From positions 1-59,104 of IMG/VR virus record IMGVR_UViG_3300036820_000020: a stretch of 59,104 nt of DNA; one strand, 5' to 3'. Under the pieces are notes generated by a model. The model was not told where the DNA came from. It made no database searches and saw only the letters and a program-made list of their open reading frames with translations. This document shows positions 1 to 57,828 of the stretch, in pieces; position 1 is the stretch's first letter, and each line of letters opens with the position of its first letter. Origin of the DNA: a virus. Both the position numbers and the translations under genes were made by a program.

Positions 1-127
1 GGTCGGGGTCGCGGTCACAGTCGGGGTCGGAGTCAAGGTCAACAATTAAATGAGCGCAATCTTTACATCCTTGTTTCCCTCCGATCTCGGCTTGCCGCCT
101 AAATTCACGTCTTATCGGCGCCATCAA
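1..127. repeat. Direct terminal repeat, left copy (circular genome)
   Basis: These 127 bases are identical to 58978-59104. A 127-base overlap is a common k-mer length in short-read assembly, so I read it as proof of circular closure rather than a physical terminal repeat. Positions 1-53 are the end of the last small repeat gene (58806-59030), whose stop overlaps the helicase start. Confidence 0.95.
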
Positions 128-1663
128 TCGGACGCAATCGAATGGCTGATGAATCAGATCCAGGAAGAATCAGTCTCTCCGGCAGTCCCTCCGGCAGTCC
201 CTCCGGCAGTCCCTCCGGCAGTCCTGGCCGCCTTGCTGCCCACAGGCAGTGGCAAGACAGCTATCGCGGTATCGCTAGCGCGGCTGCTCGGAGTCAAAGC
301 TGTATATCTCGTAGCCACCAGAGCTTTACAAGAACAAGTCCTGTCCGAATTCGCTTCGATGGGAATGGTAGATATAAGAGGCAGGGCTAATTACAATTGC
401 CAGTCCTATCTGAATTGCGATATAGGAAATGATCGTAACTGCTCTAGGAAAAATACCTCCGCCTGTCCTTATACTAACGCGGTCGAAGCGGCCAAAGACT
501 CCGATCTGGTTGTGACTAACTATGCCTACTGGCTATACGCCAGGAAAGCTAACCGGCAGGCGTTGGAGAGAGACGAATGGCCGGTAGAATTATTGATATG
601 CGACGAAGCGCATTCGATAGAAAGTCAACTTGGAAGCTTTGCCAGTGTCACTATCTATCAAAGCGAATTGACTGGCATAAGTGTTTCGAAAGACGGAATG
701 ATGGGAGCGAAAGAAGATGATGAAAATGATCATACATGGAGTAAATGGGCCGCTAAAACAATAGAGAAATGTGAGAAAGTCAAGGACCGGATATCGAACC
801 GCCAGGATGAGCGCTACAAGGACGCGGACGATTTAGAAGAACGGTGCGGGCGTGTCCTCCGCATGAATTCCAATTGGGTATGGCAGTTCGAAGACCGCAA
901 AGGACACTGTAGCTTCGAACCTGTCAGGCTTTCGAAATGGACTTCGGGTCTTTTCTCCGGCGTCTCTAAAATCCTGATGATGTCGGCCAGTCTGGACGAA
1001 TTCAGTTTGCGGTTGGTGATGCCAGCCGAACAATCTTACTCTTACAAAGCCTGGCCGCAGGTGTTCAACCCGGCTAAATCTCCGGTCTACCATGTTCCAA
1101 CGGTCAAATTGAATTGGAAAAGCACGGATGAAGACTATCAAACTGTCATCGCGGCGGCCGATTCGATTATTGATTCGCGTCTCGACCGCAAAGGCATCAT
1201 TCATACAGTCTCGTATGCCCGCTCCAAACGAGCCTTGCAGTATTCACATCACGCTCAAAGATTTATCTGGAACGAGGGAACAGGTGATCTGCGGAGTTGC
1301 CTCCAAAGATTTCTCGCGGCTGATGCTGGAACCGTGCTCGTCACCCCGTCGGTCGAAGAAGGATTCGATTTCCCCGGAGATCTCACGCGCTACCAAATCC
1401 TCATGAAGTTCCCGTTTCCAAATGAGACACAAAGAGTCATCAAGGAACGCTGCAATCAGATACCAGGATACCGGCTGCACTGGGCCTCTCAAAAGACGGT
1501 TCAGATCAGAGGCAGACCGGTCAGGTCAGAGAGCGATTGGTCGGAGATGTTCATCTTAGACAACTCCTGTAGACAGTTGAGCGGAGCCGAAGGCCGATCG
1601 TATTGTCCTCCCGGATTCAGGCTTTTCACCGTGGCCGCGGCCCCGCCGCCGCCAAAACTATAA
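50..1663 (+). CDS. DinG/XPD-like superfamily 2 DNA helicase with Fe-S cysteines
   Basis: Predicted ATP-dependent 5'-3' DNA helicase of 537 aa for replication or recombination. Visible motifs are a Q-motif-like YRRHQSD near residue 22, Walker A PTGSGKT at about 64-70, DEAH at 185-188 and a C-terminal QIRGRPVRSESD arginine motif. Four cysteines (C117, C123, C131, C139) lie between Walker A and DEAH, as in the 4Fe-4S domain of XPD and DinG. An odd fourfold 12-bp repeat (177-224) encodes PPAV copies immediately before Walker A. The start overlaps the stop of the preceding small repeat gene as ATGA across the circle junction, so it is translated as the continuation of that operon. The family assignment is firm; the exact role is inferred. 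Confidence 0.88.
   Translation: MSAIFTSLFPSDLGLPPKFTSYRRHQSDAIEWLMNQIQEESVSPAVPPAVPPAVPPAVLAALLPTGSGKTAIAVSLARLLGVKAVYLVATRALQEQVLSEFASMGMVDIRGRANYNCQSYLNCDIGNDRNCSRKNTSACPYTNAVEAAKDSDLVVTNYAYWLYARKANRQALERDEWPVELLICDEAHSIESQLGSFASVTIYQSELTGISVSKDGMMGAKEDDENDHTWSKWAAKTIEKCEKVKDRISNRQDERYKDADDLEERCGRVLRMNSNWVWQFEDRKGHCSFEPVRLSKWTSGLFSGVSKILMMSASLDEFSLRLVMPAEQSYSYKAWPQVFNPAKSPVYHVPTVKLNWKSTDEDYQTVIAAADSIIDSRLDRKGIIHTVSYARSKRALQYSHHAQRFIWNEGTGDLRSCLQRFLAADAGTVLVTPSVEEGFDFPGDLTRYQILMKFPFPNETQRVIKERCNQIPGYRLHWASQKTVQIRGRPVRSESDWSEMFILDNSCRQLSGAEGRSYCPPGFRLFTVAAAPPPPKL
177..224 (+). repeat. Four 12-bp tandem repeats inside the helicase gene
   Basis: Unit CTCCGGCAGTCC is repeated four times and encodes PPAV steps between the Q-motif region and Walker A. 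It is one of many in-frame repeat expansions in this genome. Confidence 0.9.
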
Positions 1664-1689: not shown

Positions 1690-2700
1690 ATGCCAAAAGT
1701 ATCGAGCGCGCCAGAAGACGCATTGCATTTCAAAGGATCATACGCCGATGGATGGGGAGAAGTAGTGGACGCCAAAGCCGTTGTTTTCCAATACCCGCCA
1801 GATAAGTCTACCGGCCGCCAGGACACACCGTCACTTTTCTGCGAGCTGACGATTCAGCGCTATCGCGAACCCGAGACTAAAGACGCGACAGCCCCGGAAT
1901 CAATCATGTTGTCTATTCAACGCAGCGACAAAATGACGGGGGAACTGTCCCTCGTTCACCCCGGCAAATATCCCAACGGCAACTTGGAAGCGGACCCCGA
2001 AGACATGAGCGGAGGTCTCGGTGCCGAAGGAGACACCCTGTTCGCTCTTCAGGACGGCTACCAGATCAACGACAAGACCAAATGGATGAGATTTACCCAG
2101 TCCCTAGTCGAAAAGGGCTTCAAGCCGGCGGTCCTGAAGCGGACGTACTTCCCAGATTTGGTAGGTCTGCGCGCCTACTTCACGAATCTGACGGAGAAAA
2201 AGTTCCGGGATGACCAGACCAGCGATCCGACGGTCTTTGTTGTCAAGGAGATCCGGCAGTTCCCTTATGAAAAGAAAGCCGTGGCCAAAGGCAAACCTGC
2301 CGCCGCGGAAAAGAAAACGGCTGCGGCTGCGGCTGCGGCTGCCGCTAAGCCGGTGAACGGAGCGCCAACTCCGTCAACTCTATCAGCACCCGAAGAGACC
2401 GCGGACGGAATTGGCGGCGGTTCGGCTGCCGCCGAAGATATCGCGTTCGACATTGTCAAAAACACCCTCGCGCCCGCCAAGAAAGGAACGACAATCGCGT
2501 CTCCCGGAGATCCGCAGGCTGGCATCAACCGCTTGAAAATCGAAGCCTACCTGGCCATCAACAGACACAAACCGGCGGTACCGGCGGCCCTAAAGAAAGC
2601 TGTGCAGGAGAAGCTCGGGGACACGACGTGGCTGGAGGCAATCGGAGCGGTGAACGAACTGTTTTCACTTGGCGAGGATGGGTCGGTGACATTCCAATGA
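1690..2700 (+). CDS. Hypothetical protein of the recombination operon, possible ssDNA-binding protein
   Basis: 336 aa. The ATG at 1690 is chosen because the purine-rich stretch GGAAAGAGAG lies just upstream; a longer reading from 1603 would overlap the helicase by about 60 bases. Residues 1-180 look like a compact mixed alpha/beta or beta domain. A poly-Ala/Lys linker follows (about 195-225, a GCN expansion), then a C-terminal helical domain of about 80 aa. I do not recognise a family. Its position between a helicase and nuclease/Sak4-type genes, and the globular-linker-tail design, would suit a single-strand DNA-binding or recombination mediator protein, but no diagnostic motif was seen. Confidence 0.75.
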   Translation: MPKVSSAPEDALHFKGSYADGWGEVVDAKAVVFQYPPDKSTGRQDTPSLFCELTIQRYREPETKDATAPESIMLSIQRSDKMTGELSLVHPGKYPNGNLEADPEDMSGGLGAEGDTLFALQDGYQINDKTKWMRFTQSLVEKGFKPAVLKRTYFPDLVGLRAYFTNLTEKKFRDDQTSDPTVFVVKEIRQFPYEKKAVAKGKPAAAEKKTAAAAAAAAAKPVNGAPTPSTLSAPEETADGIGGGSAAAEDIAFDIVKNTLAPAKKGTTIASPGDPQAGINRLKIEAYLAINRHKPAVPAALKKAVQEKLGDTTWLEAIGAVNELFSLGEDGSVTFQ

Positions 2701-3152
2701 GAACGCTTACCGACCACATTGTCAGTATGGATCAAGCCGTTCAGTTGCAGATAGAGGTGCTGGACGAACCTGGTGCTGGCGGCGCTTGTCATCAGTATTC
2801 GATTGGCTGGAACGCCATCAAGACGCTCCTCCCGACGATTGCAGAGTTAGAGGCCATCCTGGAGAAGGGGGAAACCCTATCGATATCTCCAGACAGTCAG
2901 CATTTCTCGCTCGGGAACACGTGTTTCATAGGGTTCCAGAACGGCCCTATCAAAGAGTTCGGCGTCAACGGCATCACGCAAGAGGCTCTACTGGCTATCG
3001 TCATTGACCGTCTTCGCTCCTTTCAGACTGGCCCGTTTTCCTGCCGGGAGAACGCAATCGCCCTGACACACATTGAAGAAGCTCTCATGTGGCTTCAGCG
3101 GCGCACCGTAGCAAGAATTAAGCGGGGAGTAGAAGGCACAATCCAAAAGTAA
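2697..3152 (+). CDS. tad1: Tad1/Acb2-family cyclic-nucleotide sponge (anti-Thoeris/anti-CBASS)
   Basis: 151 aa, start overlapping the previous stop as ATGA. The C-terminal half carries a pattern I associate with Tad1 proteins: FQNGPIKEFGVNG, LLAIVIDRL.SFQ.GPF.C.ENAIAL, and a final RT..R..RGVEGT. From memory, ligand-binding residues of cbTad1 are F82, N92, R109 and R113; F109, N119, R136 and R140 here have exactly the same spacing (10, 17, 4). Tad1 sequesters gcADPR signals of Thoeris, and some members bind cyclic oligonucleotides of CBASS, so the predicted role is early protection of the phage. The N-terminal 75 residues are less conserved. Ligand choice cannot be told from sequence. Confidence 0.78.
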   Translation: MRTLTDHIVSMDQAVQLQIEVLDEPGAGGACHQYSIGWNAIKTLLPTIAELEAILEKGETLSISPDSQHFSLGNTCFIGFQNGPIKEFGVNGITQEALLAIVIDRLRSFQTGPFSCRENAIALTHIEEALMWLQRRTVARIKRGVEGTIQK

Positions 3153-3179: not shown

Positions 3180-3791
3180 ATGCCGACTCTGATCTCAGAG
3201 ATCGATGTGAAACTGGAACGGTCCGATTTGGCGAGGAGAGCCGTATTGCCTCGCCAGACCGGACCGGACGGCTACATCATCCCACCGGCCAGGTCCGCCG
3301 GCTTACATCTCTCCGGCCTGTTGAAATACTGCGCCGATATTTCTAAACTTACTTCCCGTCTCGAAGATATCCGGGATGAGGAAATGCCCCTCCGCTGGGT
3401 GTTAGGACACGCGATTGAAGAGTTCCTCGCCAGTCTTTATCCAGATATGGTCTGGCAGCCTGGGGAAATCACAAGACCGGTTATCATGAACGCGGACGGC
3501 ATGACTTTTACCGGCGGAGAATTCAGAATCGAAGAGTTCAAATGCCGCCGCGCCAAAAAACTAACGCAACGGGATCTCTTGAATAAGTGGCTGTGGATGT
3601 CGCAAGGACTGGGCTATTGCCTCGGATACCAATGCAGGTTAGTCCAGTGGCATGTATTCTCGCTTTTCGAATGGCCGGACCCGGTCTACACCAGGTACCT
3701 CATAAAATTCAGCCAGGCGGAGATAGACGGGATGGAACGAATGATCGAATCGAACAGGGAAGCGGCTATTAGAAAAGGATACAGCGAATGA
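3180..3791 (+). CDS. PD-(D/E)XK (RecB/Cas4-like) nuclease
   Basis: 203 aa. A conserved-looking GHAIEEFL helix (about 78-85) fits the histidine-containing motif I of RecB-type nucleases, and the segment GGEF-RIEEFKCRR (about 115-127) gives the E-x-K catalytic core. The usual TPDG turn is altered here (FTGGEF), so the metal-binding acidic residue may be supplied by the neighbouring glutamate. Its stop overlaps the next start (ATGA), coupling it to the Sak4-like ATPase, a frequent phage recombination pairing. It may act as an exonuclease feeding single-strand annealing. The upstream gap holds AAGTAAGTAAGTAA. Confidence 0.7.
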   Translation: MPTLISEIDVKLERSDLARRAVLPRQTGPDGYIIPPARSAGLHLSGLLKYCADISKLTSRLEDIRDEEMPLRWVLGHAIEEFLASLYPDMVWQPGEITRPVIMNADGMTFTGGEFRIEEFKCRRAKKLTQRDLLNKWLWMSQGLGYCLGYQCRLVQWHVFSLFEWPDPVYTRYLIKFSQAEIDGMERMIESNREAAIRKGYSE

Positions 3792-4576
3792 AGAATACGA
3801 TCGTACCGGTCGAATTCGAGACGCTTACAATCGGCACGCCGGATAAACTCTTTCTCGGTGTGTTTGGCCGGGCGGGCACAGGTAAGACCCGTCTGATGGC
3901 GACGGCGCCAGGACTAGCCGTAATCCCTTTACAACGAAAGACCCGTCCGACGGTCGAACAGGTCATGAAAGAACTCTACCCTCATCGCCGGATCTACTGG
4001 CCTAAAGACGCGGAAGCCTTCTACAAATACAAGAATCCGATGGAAATGTCCATGATGGATTTGCAGGCGTCGAAAGACTTTTACAGAGACCTGGTGGATA
4101 AAGTGAAAGCGACATGCTGGAAACTGCTTGATAACAAAGACGTGAAGACGATTGGGATCGACAGCGGCTATCAGTTGTATCAGATGATCGTAGCGGCCCA
4201 CTATGGAAGATCGAACCGGTTCAGCGCGGAGAAGACAGCGTGGGAGCCGCCGAATACCGAGATGAGATCGCTACTCGAATCGCTTCAGACAAAGCATTTG
4301 ATAGTGACTACGGAAGCCAAGGAAGCATACCTGCAAAAGACAGCGCTCGGATACGATGAGCCAGCCGGTTATAAGCAGCTCGGCTTTGACGCAAACGTTC
4401 TAATCGAGACCCGGTTCACAGTTGAAGACGGGTTTTGGCTTGATGTCAGAATGTGCCAGGATCGAGCCGCTCTGCAAGGGCCTGACGGACAGAAGCTTCT
4501 GACTGGGGAAATGGCCGAGTTCAAGTACCTGGCCTGTTCGCTCAGACCAGATAGCGAATTAGGAGACTGGGAATAG
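3788..4576 (+). CDS. Sak4-like AAA/RecA-type P-loop ATPase
   Basis: 262 aa. Walker A is GRAGTGKT at residues 27-34. A beta strand ending in an acidic residue (KTIGIDSGYQLYQ) serves as Walker B. A phage P-loop protein of this length next to a RecB-like nuclease and a helicase matches the Sak4 group of single-strand annealing/recombination ATPases. It is translationally coupled to the nuclease. It could instead be a generic AAA_24 family ATPase; the role in recombination is inferred from context. Confidence 0.75.
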   Translation: MKNTIVPVEFETLTIGTPDKLFLGVFGRAGTGKTRLMATAPGLAVIPLQRKTRPTVEQVMKELYPHRRIYWPKDAEAFYKYKNPMEMSMMDLQASKDFYRDLVDKVKATCWKLLDNKDVKTIGIDSGYQLYQMIVAAHYGRSNRFSAEKTAWEPPNTEMRSLLESLQTKHLIVTTEAKEAYLQKTALGYDEPAGYKQLGFDANVLIETRFTVEDGFWLDVRMCQDRAALQGPDGQKLLTGEMAEFKYLACSLRPDSELGDWE

Positions 4577-6065: not shown

Positions 6066-6686
6066 ATGCACAAGTCTAAACCTAGTCTTTGGAAACAGAT
6101 CCCTTCCTGTTGGTTTGACTTTCAGGATATCTACGATGAAGCGGTCCAGACCGCCTCTGCTGGCTCTGTCCTGGTCGAAGTCGGATCGTTCTGGGGACAG
6201 TCCGCCGTTTATTTAGCGGAGGCCGCTAAGATCGCTGACAAAGATCTTAGAGTTTACGCGGTAGATTCCTGGTCGATGAATCCAAATACAGACCCTTGGC
6301 TATTCGACAAGACCAGCAAAACCAATGTAGAGCCGGGAGTTCACGCGGAACACCACGACTCGCTATTCGAGACAATGGCGCATTTCGTAGACAGGACCGG
6401 TCTGTCTCCAGACCCGCTTAGAATCATGCGGATGGATAGTTTAGAAGCCGCGGACCTGTTCACCGGTCGTAGTCCGCTTCACTTCGTTTTCCTGGATGGA
6501 AATCATTCGTACGAGTATCTGACGCGCGAACTCATGGAGTGGGAGCCGCTGATTTCCGTGGCCGGTGGAATGATCGCTGGCCACGATTATCACCCCGGCT
6601 TTCCCGGCGTTAAAAAAGCCGTAGACGAGTATTTTGGCCGTAGCCAAGCGGTGGAAGTGAAGGGAAGGAGCTGGATTGTCAGATGA
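6066..6686 (+). CDS. SAM-dependent methyltransferase (Methyltransf_24-like)
   Basis: 206 aa class I methyltransferase. Motif I VLVEVGSFWGQSAVYLA (about 36-52) binds SAM, RVYAVDSW gives the acidic strand-2 residue, and FVFLDGNHSYEY followed by GGMIAGHDYH is typical of the CmcI/Methyltransf_24 group that O-methylates sugars or small molecules. It is a paralogue of the gene at 7528, with the same FDFQD-IYDEA / FGWQD-LYDEV opening. The stop overlaps the start of the glycosyltransferase at 6683 (ATGA). A role in methylating a phage-made glycan is inferred from its neighbours. Confidence 0.8.
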   Translation: MHKSKPSLWKQIPSCWFDFQDIYDEAVQTASAGSVLVEVGSFWGQSAVYLAEAAKIADKDLRVYAVDSWSMNPNTDPWLFDKTSKTNVEPGVHAEHHDSLFETMAHFVDRTGLSPDPLRIMRMDSLEAADLFTGRSPLHFVFLDGNHSYEYLTRELMEWEPLISVAGGMIAGHDYHPGFPGVKKAVDEYFGRSQAVEVKGRSWIVR

Positions 6687-7531
6687 GTAACGTCGTTGTA
6701 GTCTCTACATACCGCAGGCCGTTCTCGGCCAAACTCTGTCTCGAAGCGTTAGCTAGGTGTCAGCGTTGGTCTGAAGACTGGGTAGCATGGGGAAGCGCGT
6801 GGGCGGATAAGATCGTCATCGGCATATCAGCCGGTAGAAACGCGGACCCTGATGTTGAAAAACAGGCGGTCAAGGTAGTAGAGAGAAATCCGGATATACC
6901 GTTTGAAATCGTTAAAGAGACCTGCGACTCGCATCCGAACAACGTGTCCAAATGGCTGTTGGACTATGGATTTAAAGGTGACAGCGTGGAAGCTGTCCTG
7001 TACGTGGAGGACGACGCGATCCTGGCCACGGACGCTTTCCACCTATGTGAATGGACGAAACAATTCAGTCAAGATAATCGGGATCGGAACGTGATTGGCT
7101 GCTGCTGCTACCACGAAACCATCCCAGCTCACTACGCCGCTGAAGGAAGATCTCCGGACGATCGTCTCATCCGCATAGGCAATGGTTTGAATACCTGCGG
7201 CGGCACGATGTTTCTTCGCGCACCTTACTTCAAAATCCTGGCTCCCAATTGGAATTGCAAACAGGTAGAACCGAAAGGATTTGACTATTCGGCTCATTAC
7301 CTGATGTATCTGAACAATCTTTTTATGATGTGGCCAGACTTGTCCAGATCTTTCAATATTGGCTTTGAACGCGGCGCGCTCTCTTATCCTATCTGGCTCA
7401 AGTACTTCGGACAGTCGATATGGACAACGACCAGACAGTCGGCCAGGTCTTGGAAAGAATTCAAGTTTGACGGCAGCCAGCCGAAGATTTTCAAAGAGCC
7501 ATGGATGGAGAAAGAACTGGGGAATATATGA
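6683..7531 (+). CDS. GT-A fold glycosyltransferase
   Basis: 282 aa. It starts with a Rossmann-like strand (NVVVVSTYRRP) and has a central VLYVEDDAIL segment, a DXD-type metal/nucleotide-sugar site similar in context to GT13 (GnT-I-like) enzymes. A Cys-rich loop GCCCYHET and GGTMFLRAPYF follow. It overlaps both flanking methyltransferase genes by ATGA, so the three proteins are made together. Position 6697-6709 in its fifth to ninth codons is one of the ten TGTAG-N3-CTACA palindromes. Substrate unknown. Confidence 0.72.
   Translation: MSNVVVVSTYRRPFSAKLCLEALARCQRWSEDWVAWGSAWADKIVIGISAGRNADPDVEKQAVKVVERNPDIPFEIVKETCDSHPNNVSKWLLDYGFKGDSVEAVLYVEDDAILATDAFHLCEWTKQFSQDNRDRNVIGCCCYHETIPAHYAAEGRSPDDRLIRIGNGLNTCGGTMFLRAPYFKILAPNWNCKQVEPKGFDYSAHYLMYLNNLFMMWPDLSRSFNIGFERGALSYPIWLKYFGQSIWTTTRQSARSWKEFKFDGSQPKIFKEPWMEKELGNI
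6697..6709. promoter_or_regulatory. Dispersed palindrome TGTAG-TCT-CTACA (site 1)
   Basis: A perfect 5+5 inverted repeat around a 3-base spacer, located 15 bases into the glycosyltransferase gene and encoding V-V-S-T. It is a candidate operator for the KorB/ParB-like protein at 54622; position just downstream of a start codon is compatible with roadblock repression. Confidence 0.6.
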
Positions 7532-8181
7532 TTACCTGGCGCGATTGTCCCGGCTGGTTTGGCTGGCAGGATCTCTATGACGAAGTGGCTCTCACCACTC
7601 CACCCGGCTCCTCAGTAGTCGAAGTCGGCGTAGCGTTCGGACGCTCTCTTCTCTATCTAGCAAAAAAAATCAAAGACACCGGCAAAGACATAAAAGTCTA
7701 TGCGGTCGATCCGTGGGAGCCATATAAAGAGATGGACTTCTGCTACCCGGAGATCTACGGCGTACAGCCCAAAAATGAACAGGAATGGGCGGCCTATAAC
7801 TGCCGGACGCGGCACGGCGGTGTCTTCCCGGCGTTCCTCCATCACTTATATGAAAGCGGCTTGTCAGATATTGTAAGAGTCGTCAGAGCAAACAGTATAG
7901 CGGCGTCTATGCTGTTCGAATACAGGTTGAGCGGCAAGATTTCTCATCCGCCGTATTTCGTATTTATTGACGGCGATCACACCCAGAGATCGGTCGAAAA
8001 CGATTTAGATGTCTGGTGGGATACCGGTCCGGAATGGATGGCCGGACACGATTTTGATCCGCCCAGTGAAACGAATTTTCCCGGCGTCTGGAAGGCCGTT
8101 CATCAGAAATGGGGAGAACAGCAGATCGAAACGGACGGCCAGGGATGCTGGATTGCCAGACGGGCGAGAATTGACAAATAA
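7528..8181 (+). CDS. SAM-dependent methyltransferase, second copy
   Basis: 217 aa from the ATG that overlaps the preceding TGA at 7529-7531. Motif I SVVEVGVAFGRSLLYLA, strand 2 KVYAVDPW, and FVFIDGDHTQRSVENDL followed by WMAGHDF match the Methyltransf_24/CmcI group. It is clearly paralogous to the gene at 6066 but divergent, so the pair probably acts on different positions or substrates. The last gene of the cassette, it is separated from the ERCC4 nuclease by a 26-base tandem GATAAGC spacer. Confidence 0.8.
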   Translation: MITWRDCPGWFGWQDLYDEVALTTPPGSSVVEVGVAFGRSLLYLAKKIKDTGKDIKVYAVDPWEPYKEMDFCYPEIYGVQPKNEQEWAAYNCRTRHGGVFPAFLHHLYESGLSDIVRVVRANSIAASMLFEYRLSGKISHPPYFVFIDGDHTQRSVENDLDVWWDTGPEWMAGHDFDPPSETNFPGVWKAVHQKWGEQQIETDGQGCWIARRARIDK

Positions 8182-39692: not shown

Positions 39693-41516
39693 TCATTCAC
39701 CCGTTACCGTTATCGCGTCTGGAGATCCAGTGACCAGAAATGAATAACTTCCAATACCGTACCCGGATACAAACCACTGATGTTTGTAGGTCGCGGGCGG
39801 CAGATCCGGCATGACATCAGTATACTCCAAGGTTCCATCCGCGGCCAGATTTCCCACTACTCCCAATCTGGTCTTGTTCCCTTGCCTGTCCACCAGCAGA
39901 TACGACACCGGCAGACCGACGGGCATCCACGGTTCCACACAGTCTCCTTTGAAGCCGTCAACTTCGAATCCAATATGCAATTTGACCGTCCATTGATCGC
40001 CAACGGCAAACGACAGGCCGGAAGATAACGCCAGCGCCGCCTGTCCTTTCTTGGATTTGCCGTAACCTACACCGCAGTCCGGACTAACCGATTGATAACC
40101 TGCAACAGTCAATTTCGATGTAATGTTCATGACTTGACTTTCACTTTGCAATTCTATTCTTCTTGTATGGATCTCACCGGCAGCCGGATTCGACTTGAAC
40201 TGATGCGGATATAGCGCGTTTGGGACACCGCGCCGCAGGAAGCCGCATAGCTCAGGCCATCCAGCTCCGGAACTCATATCCATGACTAATAGATCGGATT
40301 TTCTGTCTTTAAAATATTCCAGTACTTCGGAATTGTGGCGGCGATAACGGCGTATAAAAACCTCCGCGTCGAAGTCTTCCTGTCCGTATAATTCCCGATG
40401 GAGGTAGAGAGGGAAATTGTTTTGCTTGTTCCAGGTATCCCGGAACTCATTTGCGATACTCCAGTGGCGTTGAACACTCGCTAGCCACGCGCGTTCATCG
40501 CGCAATGTCAAAATAAATTTGGAACGAGGATAAAGACTATCCAGTTCCCGGTAAAAAAGAGGGATTGGGAGATCCGACAGAGCGTAGTAATCTTCAAGCG
40601 CGGCGGGCCGTTTCTTCCAGGTGAGATCGTCATAGATGGATTTAGCCCATTCGACCGACTTCCAGTGTCCGCTGCTGTAGCCCAGAATTTCTAAAGCCGT
40701 ATGCAGCGAAGTCGTCCCTGTCTTGTGCATACCGATCCCGAATATCCTTGTGGGAAGACGTGTCAATTCGATCGGATCAGTTGAAAAGTTTTTGAAAACA
40801 ACACCGCAGCCGAAGTCGCCAAAATTAGCAATCGTGGCGGTTTCGGCGACTGTCGTGAACTCATCCGAACTCATCAGGACCTCTACGTCCTGATACTCTT
40901 TGAAACGCATTTTGTCGGTGTGCAGGATCACGTTCAGGTACTTACGCGGAATTTCACAAGCGTCGTAACCCAAACGGCGTACGCGGCAGTGGAAATCCTT
41001 GTCGTCCGGACCCCATTTGTTATATTTGGATTCGTCATATCCACCGGTTTTAACAAACGCGGCGGAAGTTACCACGATACGGCCATTGCAGCCTTTCGGA
41101 TATCTGGACTCGGCGGGCTGGTTGCGGTTAGCCCATAGGAACCGGAGACTGTTCTCCGAAATCTTTCCGGCTATATAACCGGCGAATCCAGGACCTGTAA
41201 AGTTGTCCGCGTCCAGGTTTACTAACACCCCGGCGCCTTCGATCATACCCAGCCGGTGGGCCATATTCTTGGCGTGCGCCATCTGGAAGTGACGGGCGGA
41301 CGGGAAACTATAGACCACCAGGCGTCCGCTTTCAATATCAGCGCGATGACAGGTTTTCAGATAATCCGAAAGACCGTCGCGGCTGTTGTAGTCTAAGACG
41401 ATATGTTTTAGATACGGATAATCTAGATTGTCGGATATATTGCGCGGCAGGGTTTCACGCAGGTGTTGCAGACGGCCCCGGCAGGTTGTACAGAAAGCGA
41501 TTGACGGAGATCCCAT
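39693..41516 (-). CDS. Glycosyltransferase - sulfotransferase fusion with C-terminal beta domain
   Basis: 607 aa, three parts. Residues 1-215: GT-A glycosyltransferase with NLDADNF (DxD, 102-104) and the acceptor/metal segment KWGPDDKDFHCRVRRLGY. Residues 255-450: PAPS-dependent sulfotransferase with the 5'-phosphosulfate loop HKTGTTS (264-270), LEILGY following and the 3'-phosphate motif LTLRDERAWLASVQRHW. Residues 470-607: a beta-rich domain (VDGFKGDCVEPWMPVG ... SYSFLVTG), perhaps carbohydrate-binding. Joining the two enzymes suggests a sugar is added and sulfated in one step, probably on virion or host-surface glycan. Within the late operon. Confidence 0.8.
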   Translation of the reverse strand: MGSPSIAFCTTCRGRLQHLRETLPRNISDNLDYPYLKHIVLDYNSRDGLSDYLKTCHRADIESGRLVVYSFPSARHFQMAHAKNMAHRLGMIEGAGVLVNLDADNFTGPGFAGYIAGKISENSLRFLWANRNQPAESRYPKGCNGRIVVTSAAFVKTGGYDESKYNKWGPDDKDFHCRVRRLGYDACEIPRKYLNVILHTDKMRFKEYQDVEVLMSSDEFTTVAETATIANFGDFGCGVVFKNFSTDPIELTRLPTRIFGIGMHKTGTTSLHTALEILGYSSGHWKSVEWAKSIYDDLTWKKRPAALEDYYALSDLPIPLFYRELDSLYPRSKFILTLRDERAWLASVQRHWSIANEFRDTWNKQNNFPLYLHRELYGQEDFDAEVFIRRYRRHNSEVLEYFKDRKSDLLVMDMSSGAGWPELCGFLRRGVPNALYPHQFKSNPAAGEIHTRRIELQSESQVMNITSKLTVAGYQSVSPDCGVGYGKSKKGQAALALSSGLSFAVGDQWTVKLHIGFEVDGFKGDCVEPWMPVGLPVSYLLVDRQGNKTRLGVVGNLAADGTLEYTDVMPDLPPATYKHQWFVSGYGIGSYSFLVTGSPDAITVTGE

Positions 41517-49306: not shown

Positions 49307-49537
49307 ATGGAAAAACGAATTGTAGTCATCGCCGCGGTGAGCCAAGAGCAACTCGAAAACGACGGATGTGATGTCGAGCAGGAATGTGACACCATCGCAC
49401 ACGCCAAGCAGCGCGCCAAGTACTACCTCACCGAGGAGTATATGAACTCAGCGGAATCCACCACCATGCTGGGATACTCCCAGGTAAAGGTGAACGGCGT
49501 AGTTGAGTACGATTTCTTCGGAAAGGGGGTGAAGTGA
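49307..49537 (+). CDS. Small hypothetical protein (leaderless)
   Basis: 76 aa from M-E-K-R-I-V-V-I. A beta strand, an acidic helix (QEQLENDGCDVEQECDTIAHAKQRAKYYLTEEYM) and a C-terminal strand pair (GYSQVKVNGVVEYDFFG) suggest a small alpha/beta fold. The start sits on the predicted transcription start of the upstream promoter, with no room for a ribosome-binding site. It overlaps or abuts the pentapeptide gene. Confidence 0.65.
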   Translation: MEKRIVVIAAVSQEQLENDGCDVEQECDTIAHAKQRAKYYLTEEYMNSAESTTMLGYSQVKVNGVVEYDFFGKGVK

Positions 49538-49539
49538 TC

Positions 49540-50100
49540 ATGAGACTGATTGACACCATTCACCAAGCCGGCAGCGGGACCGGCCTCGACGGAGCCAATC
49601 TCAGTTGGTCTGACCTCCGCAAGGCTCGCTTCAGCGGTGTATGCCTCAGCCAAGCCAATCTTAGCTGGTCCGACCTCCGCGGGACCGATCTCAGCGGGGT
49701 CAATTTACGCGGGGCCAATCTCCGCGGGGCATGCCTCAGCGGGGCCGATCTCCGCGGGGCCGATCTTAGCGGAGCCGACCTCCGCGGGACCGACCTCAGC
49801 GGGGCCAACCTACGCGGAGCCGATCTCAGCGGAGCCGATCTCAGCGGAGCCGACCTCAGCGGGGCCGACCTCAGTTGGTCCGACCTCAGCGGGGCCAACC
49901 TCAGCGGAGCCAACCTCAGCGGAGCCAACCTCAGCGGGGCCGATCTCAGCGCGGCGGACCTCCGCGGGGCCAATCTCAGTTGGTCCAATCTTAGCTGGTC
50001 TGACCTTCGCGGAGCCAATCTCCGCGGATCCAATCTCCACGGCGCATGCCTTAACGGTACCTGTCTCAACGGACTGTTAAACAAAGAGGTACTACTGTGA
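49540..50100 (+). CDS. Pentapeptide-repeat protein
   Basis: 186 aa from ATG (GTG at 49534 is an alternative); GGGGGTG lies at good spacing. More than 25 consecutive pentapeptides of the A(D/N)LSx/A(D/N)LRG type run from about residue 15 to 165, forming a right-handed quadrilateral beta-helix. Tryptophan variants (LSWSDLRG) recur at intervals. Family members such as Qnr/MfpA mimic DNA and bind gyrase, but many have no known target. As an accessory phage gene it could counter host topoisomerase or nucleic-acid-dependent defence; this is inference. Confidence 0.85.
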   Translation: MRLIDTIHQAGSGTGLDGANLSWSDLRKARFSGVCLSQANLSWSDLRGTDLSGVNLRGANLRGACLSGADLRGADLSGADLRGTDLSGANLRGADLSGADLSGADLSGADLSWSDLSGANLSGANLSGANLSGADLSAADLRGANLSWSNLSWSDLRGANLRGSNLHGACLNGTCLNGLLNKEVLL

Positions 50101-57307: not shown

Positions 57308-57562
57308 GTGATTGCGGCAATAGTTCAAGCAGGATATCAATGGTCGTGGTCGTGGTCGCGGTCGGGGTCGCGGTCGGGGTCGTGGTCGTGGCCGGGGTCT
57401 CGGTCGTTGTCTTGGTTGTGGTCGCGGTCGGGATCGGGGTCAGGGTCGCGGTCGCAGTCGTGGTCGTGGTCGTGGTCGGGGTCGGAGTCACGGTCGTGGT
57501 CGTGGTCAGGGTCGGGTTCGAAGTTAAGCAAAGGAAAACAAAAATGGCAAACGAAAACGTAA
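57308..57562 (+). CDS. Ser-Arg/Trp/Gly repeat protein, variant N-terminus (unit 0)
   Basis: 84 aa from GTG (a TTG at 57272 would add 12 residues but coincides with the -35 box). M-I-A-A-I-V-Q-A-G-Y-Q forms a short hydrophobic head. Then (Ser-X)n, X = W, R or G, runs for about 55 residues and ends in a basic KLSKGKQKWQTKT. The tail lies on the TCG-NGG hexamer array at 57342-57519. The head is unlike those of units 1-5, so only the tail is shared. Confidence 0.45.
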   Translation: MIAAIVQAGYQWSWSWSRSGSRSGSWSWPGSRSLSWLWSRSGSGSGSRSQSWSWSWSGSESRSWSWSGSGSKLSKGKQKWQTKT

Positions 57563-57828
57563 AAACAAGCTTTTGGATCGTGGGCAAATCCTATCTGATC
57601 CGGACTGTAACAATGATCGACACGGGTATCCTCGTCTCGATAGACGAACACGAAATAGTCTTATCCGATGCCGCTTGGATTGCCGACACTGGCAGATTTA
57701 GCGCCGCTCTGCACTCCTCTGACTTTCTCGAAGTCGAACCGTTCCCGGACGGGACGCGGGTGGCTATTGGCCGCGGAAGTGTTATTGACGCAGTACAGAT
57801 TCCCACGGCGCCGCGAAAATTAAAATGA
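57544..57828 (+). CDS. Conserved phage small protein (DUF6948-like)
   Basis: 94 aa. MANENVKTSFWIVGKSYLIRTVTMIDTGILVSIDEHEIVLSDAAWIADTGRFS with LEVEPFPDGTRVAIGRGSVIDA resembles a family of short beta-barrel phage proteins (tGrl....e.vL.DAaWiaDtGRf). AAGGAAAA is the ribosome-binding site, within the end of unit 0 in another frame. The stop overlaps the start of unit 1 (ATGA). Function in the family is unknown. Confidence 0.7.
   Translation: MANENVKTSFWIVGKSYLIRTVTMIDTGILVSIDEHEIVLSDAAWIADTGRFSAALHSSDFLEVEPFPDGTRVAIGRGSVIDAVQIPTAPRKLK

What the first reader, a model, noticed from the sequence alone, without database searches (positions are those of the whole stretch)
2697..3152. Tad1/Acb2-type signal sponge with all four recalled ligand residues
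The C-terminal half carries the FQNGP..E.GVNG and RT..R..RGVEGT patterns. Spacing of F109, N119, R136 and R140 equals the spacing I recall for cbTad1 F82, N92, R109 and R113. The gene is inserted between a putative ssDNA-binding gene and a nuclease in the early operon, so it would be expressed early enough to blunt Thoeris or CBASS. The 75-residue N-terminal part is divergent.
Basis: partly seen in the sequence, partly recalled or inferred. Interest (0 to 1): 0.7.

Follow-up and report, generated by a model that had tools for sequence, protein, structure and literature searches.

The report
Phage Tad1-family immune-signal sponge gene
An uncultured phage carries a clear member of the known Tad1 family, proteins that soak up the small signal molecules bacteria use to trigger suicide during infection; it is a solid find but of an already known kind.

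Summary
The ORF at 2697-3152 (+) encodes 151 aa and is a genuine Tad1-family protein. F109, N119, R136 and R140 are present and align with F82, N92, R109 and R113 of a solved Clostridium botulinum Tad1. That these are the ligand residues is recalled, not read. Pfam PF24729 (Acb2_Tad1_hairpin) matches above its cut-off. A confident AlphaFold2 model (pLDDT 87.9) has 20 Foldseek matches at E<=0.001 in the PDB, all of them Tad1. It superposes on cbTad1 with gcADPR over 123 residues at 45% identity, N-terminal strands included. So the N-terminal part is not foreign; only residues ~39-76, a long insertion, are unusual. The gene fills a variable slot: five relatives of this phage keep the order helicase - SSB-like - nuclease - Sak4 without tad1. 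At least 134 related stretches exist in IMG/VR. Most likely function: a sponge for gcADPR isomers and probably cyclic oligonucleotides, countering Thoeris/CBASS. Binding, oligomer, host, expression time and the actual target system were not testable. New member of a known kind.

The parts
2697..3152 (+). tad1: Tad1-family protein, 151 aa
2697..2810 (+). codons 1-38: N-terminal strands and loop with the DEPGAGGACHQY motif; G26 and G28 are kept in 79 of 79 sequences, D23 and H32 in 77 of 79
2811..2924 (+). codons 39-76: variable segment with a predicted extra helix (48-56); 45 residues between Y34 and F80, against 47 in L034 and at most 32 in the other 77 sequences
2934..3149 (+). codons 80-151: FQNGP loop, two long helices (95-111, 117-143) and tail with the putative ligand residues F109, N119, R136, R140
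1690..2700 (+). upstream gene, putative ssDNA-binding protein (identity not confirmed); its TGA stop overlaps the tad1 ATG (ATGA)
3180..3791 (+). downstream gene, PD-(D/E)XK-like nuclease candidate (invariant E80/E81, D106, E119-x-K121, Q142 in 6 of 6), 27 nt after tad1
3788..4576 (+). Sak4-like recombinase/annealing ATPase
   Evidence: phrog_124, 1e-09; AAA_24 just below cut-off
50..1663 (+). DEAD/DEAH-type helicase

Best explanation
The gene encodes a Tad1 sponge. Inferred from the family: the protein assembles as a hexamer (trimer of dimers), binds gcADPR isomers in six pockets between protomers, lined by the conserved loops, F109/N119/R136/R140 and the C-terminal tail, and may hold cyclic trinucleotides at the trimer interfaces. 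By holding the signal without degrading it, it would keep Thoeris (ThsA) and CBASS effectors off while the phage replicates. It was acquired, or kept while relatives lost it, as accessory cargo in a variable slot inside the replication/recombination operon. Shown here: homology, fold, residue identity, slot. Inferred: oligomer, ligands, timing, biological target.
For: Sequence: PDB Tad1 chains E 3.2e-23 to 7.6e-21, profile 1.8e-31 to cbTad1, PF24729 36 bits against cut-off 27, phrog_2428. Fold: all 20 PDB matches at E<=0.001 are Tad1, best 3.3e-10; 7uaw_A (cbTad1 with 1''-2' gcADPR) Z 12.5, 123 aligned, 2.6 A, 45% identity, model residues 1..151, against Z 6.9 for the best unrelated row. Residues: N119, R136, R140 in 79 of 79 and F109 in 78 of 79 distinct sequences; all four are also kept in the phage SBSphiJ7 protein annotated Tad1, which a review says was validated against Thoeris. 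Slot: 5 of 5 relatives lack tad1 at the junction and no match was found in their 5 records.
Against: No binding or protection data. NCBIfam and PADLOC gave no match. The Pfam match covers profile positions 20-54 of 58 only. The model is a monomer; mean pLDDT falls to 69 and 60 in the 41-50 and 61-70 blocks of the insertion, which could affect assembly or pockets. Conservation of R136 and F109 is partly built in, as search patterns contained them. The host, and thus any Thoeris or CBASS system, is unknown. No promoter support for early expression.
Confidence: 0.88

Rival explanations
1. A Tad1-fold sponge whose main ligand is not gcADPR but cyclic oligonucleotides, or another nucleotide signal, so that it is functionally an anti-CBASS protein.
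For: Tad1 binds cyclic di- and trinucleotides as well as gcADPR (review passages PMC12043709; PDB titles 8kbc, 8kbd, 8kbf). The protein has an unusual segment 39-76.
Against: All four residues taken as gcADPR-pocket residues are kept.
Confidence: 0.08
2. A Tad1 homologue carried in the virion and injected, like phiKZ gp184, rather than made early in the cell.
For: gp184 is a solved homologue (8y6v_I, E 1.1e-14), validated as injected (PMC10449902 passage) and called phiKZ Tad1 in a review (PMC13282480 passage).
Against: The phiKZ-type protein (L119) has an extra ~100-residue N-terminal part that the window protein lacks; the window gene lies among replication/recombination genes, not structural ones.
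Confidence: 0.02
3. A decayed or repurposed Tad1 fold with no sponge activity.
For: Long insertion; no functional data.
Against: Intact frame, low dN (0.18-0.38) with saturated dS against 9 relatives, invariant pocket residues.
Confidence: 0.02

Closest known systems
cbTad1, Clostridium botulinum prophage Tad1 (PDB 7uav/7uaw/8smd/8kbe/8kbf)
   Same: Same fold over 123 residues, 45% identity in the structural alignment; the four putative ligand residues; GxGGAxHxY loop
   Different: Window protein has a roughly 25-residue longer segment before the FQNGP strand; N91 of the window is H64 in cbTad1
CmTad1 (PDB 8kbb/8kbc/8kbd)
   Same: Best single-sequence PDB hit, 3.2e-23; QEGPIKEYGING and C-terminal helices
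   Different: 35-36% identity, Z 10.2-11.0
Bacillus phage SBSphiJ7 Tad1
   Same: Equivalents of F109, N119, R136, R140 and the EGT tail
   Different: 39% identity; N-terminal loop lacks GGA
Rhizobium/Agrobacterium phage proteins (OLIVR5 gp79c, IC12; hypothetical or 'ABC transporter ATPase')
   Same: The only annotated-phage relatives covering >=80% of the query, about 46% identity
   Different: Shorter segment before the FQNGP strand; other neighbours
phiKZ-type gp184
   Same: C-terminal Tad1 domain
   Different: 230 aa with an extra N-terminal part; injected with the virion (PMC10449902 passage)
Acb2
   Same: Shares the helical hairpin Pfam name and the sponge mode
   Different: Acb2 lacks the N-terminal beta-sheet (PMC12043709 passage)

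Membership tests
Tad1 | Acb2/Tad1 hairpin domain above the Pfam gathering score | tested here: met
   PF24729, 36 bits against 27
Tad1 | N-terminal antiparallel strands plus two long C-terminal helices | tested here: met
   Model strands 2-4, 17-21, 33-38, 75-80; helices 95-111, 117-143; 7uaw_A Z 12.5 over 123 residues
Tad1 | Equivalents of cbTad1 F82, N92, R109, R113 (role as ligand residues recalled) | tested here: met
   F109, N119, R136, R140
Tad1 | Carried by a phage or prophage | tested here: met
   Window is a 59104-base virus record with terminase, portal and major head protein matches
Tad1 | Hexamer, trimer of dimers | not testable with these tools
   Only a monomer can be predicted here
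Tad1 | Binds gcADPR isomers and cyclic oligonucleotides; blocks Thoeris/CBASS | not testable with these tools
   Needs biochemistry and plaque assays
[quoted passage not shown]
   Model has four N-terminal strands of 3 or more residues

The most novel reading that the evidence does not exclude
The long segment 39-76, with an extra predicted helix and shared only with the L034 protein among 79 sequences, may define a Tad1 subgroup in which the insertion reaches a ligand site or subunit interface and changes which signals are held, for instance to escape a Panoptes-type decoy sensor while still catching gcADPR.
Probability: 0.07. Interest if true: 0.5.

Novelty: new member of a known kind. Interest (0 to 1): 0.2.

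Why it matters
It extends the known reach of Tad1 to a lineage of uncultured phages and to a large full-length subfamily (134 related stretches in IMG/VR) sharing the same N-terminal motif and pocket residues. It also marks a cargo slot between the SSB-like and nuclease genes where other anti-defence genes may be sought. Because Tad1 proteins can trigger the Panoptes defence (PMC12657218 passage), variants with an altered segment are useful for testing signal specificity. None of this changes the understanding of the family.

Tried and rejected
Acb2 as the label: rejected on the N-terminal strands. Insertion 39-76 as a known domain: no Pfam or PHROG match at E<=10; tblastn with the L034 version in phages gave only two matches at E 4, taken as chance. 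Upstream gene as SSB: no Pfam match, PHROG only at 0.31, nothing convincing in the PDB, AlphaFold2 model poor (pLDDT 49.3), so no fold search was run with it. Nuclease gene: no Pfam or PHROG match and only a chance-level PDB row; only the conserved pattern supports it. Promoters: 5 found, 4.2 expected. Primary Tad1 papers by DOI are not held, and a search with the residue names listed no Tad1 paper naming them, so the ligand role of F82/N92/R109/R113 stays recalled. Four paper searches ran; none was aimed at this phage, so nothing is claimed about it being absent from print. In VIA-align rows, 7uq2_A (T4 Vs.4, an Acb2 by recall; Z 5.3) is within the level of unrelated helical rows.

Full report
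The window is one whole virus record of 59104 bases, with matches to terminase large subunit, portal and major head protein and no tRNA gene. The finding concerns the ORF at 2697-3152 (+), which starts at an ATG overlapping the stop of the upstream gene (ATGA), runs 151 codons and ends 27 nt before the next gene.

Observation. Aligned by phmmer with cbTad1 chain 8kbg_D they fall on F82, N92, R109 and R113, so the recalled spacing is right. That these are the ligand-contacting residues rests on recall: the primary papers are not held. Chance is excluded by E-values of 3.2e-23 (CmTad1) and 5.3e-21 (cbTad1) in the PDB, 4.9e-33 to phrog_2428 and a PF24729 match above cut-off. NCBIfam and PADLOC gave nothing. 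Codon-position differences against 9 relatives show a protein under purifying selection.

N-terminal part. With a profile of 79 sequences, cbTad1 aligns from profile position 14, through GxGGAxHxY. AlphaFold2 on that alignment gives pLDDT 87.9, pTM 0.74. All 20 Foldseek matches at E<=0.001 in the PDB are Tad1, and cbTad1 bound to gcADPR superposes from residue 1 to 151 (Z 12.5, 123 residues, 2.6 A, 45% identity; next unrelated row Z 6.9). What is truly unusual is the stretch 39-76. Between Y34 and F80 the window protein has 45 residues; L034 has 47 and shares a PTIxELExIL helix; the other 77 of 79 sequences have 32 or fewer. It matches no known domain.

Relatives. A first scan of IMG/VR gave 21 loci; a scan with an alignment gave 134 related stretches, of which 80 were kept; a scan of genomes of 84,980 prokaryote species gave 8. 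In 79 distinct sequences (window included, after dropping 10 duplicates and one with a broken frame) N119, R136, R140, E146 and G147 are invariant and F109 is kept in 78. F109 and R136 lie within the search patterns, so their conservation is partly built in; N119, R140, E146 and G147 do not. In the annotated phage collection 128 records match, but only 6 over at least 80% of the query, all Rhizobium or Agrobacterium phages at about 46% identity and annotated as hypothetical or 'ABC transporter ATPase'.

Setting. The order is helicase, SSB-like gene, tad1, nuclease-like gene, Sak4-like gene. Five relatives of the phage, found by the nuclease and Sak4 proteins (L023 and L028 are one contig), keep helicase, SSB-like, nuclease and Sak4 in the same order but have no tad1 at the junction: gaps of 15, 39, 120, 339 and 721 nt against 479 in the window. 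A Tad1 profile found nothing in these loci while it found all four control loci, and the protein had no match in the five records, some of which are fragments. In L023 the slot holds a 93-aa ORF whose homologue lies at 57544-57828 in the window. The nuclease label rests on an invariant E-D-ExK-Q pattern in 6 of 6 sequences; the SSB label could not be confirmed. Early expression is inferred from gene content; promoter matches were not above chance.

Function. A review (passages read, PMC12043709) describes Tad1 as a hexamer of three dimers holding gcADPR or cyclic dinucleotides in six pockets and cyclic trinucleotides at two trimer interfaces. With fold and pocket residues kept, the same mode of action is the best explanation here. 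Oligomer, ligands and the defence system countered remain inferred. The phiKZ homologue gp184 is injected (PMC10449902 passage), but the window protein lacks the extra N-terminal part of the phiKZ type. CbTad1 and ColiTad1 trigger Panoptes (PMC12657218 passage), so carrying Tad1 can also be a liability.

Verdict. A well-supported Tad1 homologue in an uncultured phage: new member of a known kind, modest interest.

Noticed in passing
window 57544-57828 and L023 3412-3693: A 94-aa ORF near the window's right end has a 72%-identical homologue that in a related phage occupies the same SSB-nuclease slot as tad1; it may be another cargo gene.
   Followed up: partly
L027 4154-4330: The slot in another relative holds a different 58-aa ORF.
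   Followed up: no
window 49534-50100: 188-aa pentapeptide-repeat protein (PF00805, 2.7e-61); such proteins can mimic DNA (recalled).
   Followed up: no
window 39693-41516: 607-aa protein with a galactosyltransferase-like N-terminal part and a sulfotransferase domain.
   Followed up: no
window 6066-6686, 7501-8181: Methyltransf_24 match in the ORF at 6066-6686; the ORF at 7501-8181 looks similar by eye. They lie beside glycosyltransferase-like ORFs (by eye), which suggests a surface or DNA modification cassette.
   Followed up: no
L118 3001-3402 and L120 995-1354: Tad1 genes of Agrobacterium phage OLIVR5 and phage f2b1 also lie near recombination genes (recombination endonuclease subunits; RecA); two examples only.
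   Followed up: no
L015 / L064 (one contig): A close Tad1 relative (87% identity in its best segment) matches in more than one frame, by sequencing error or real decay.
   Followed up: no
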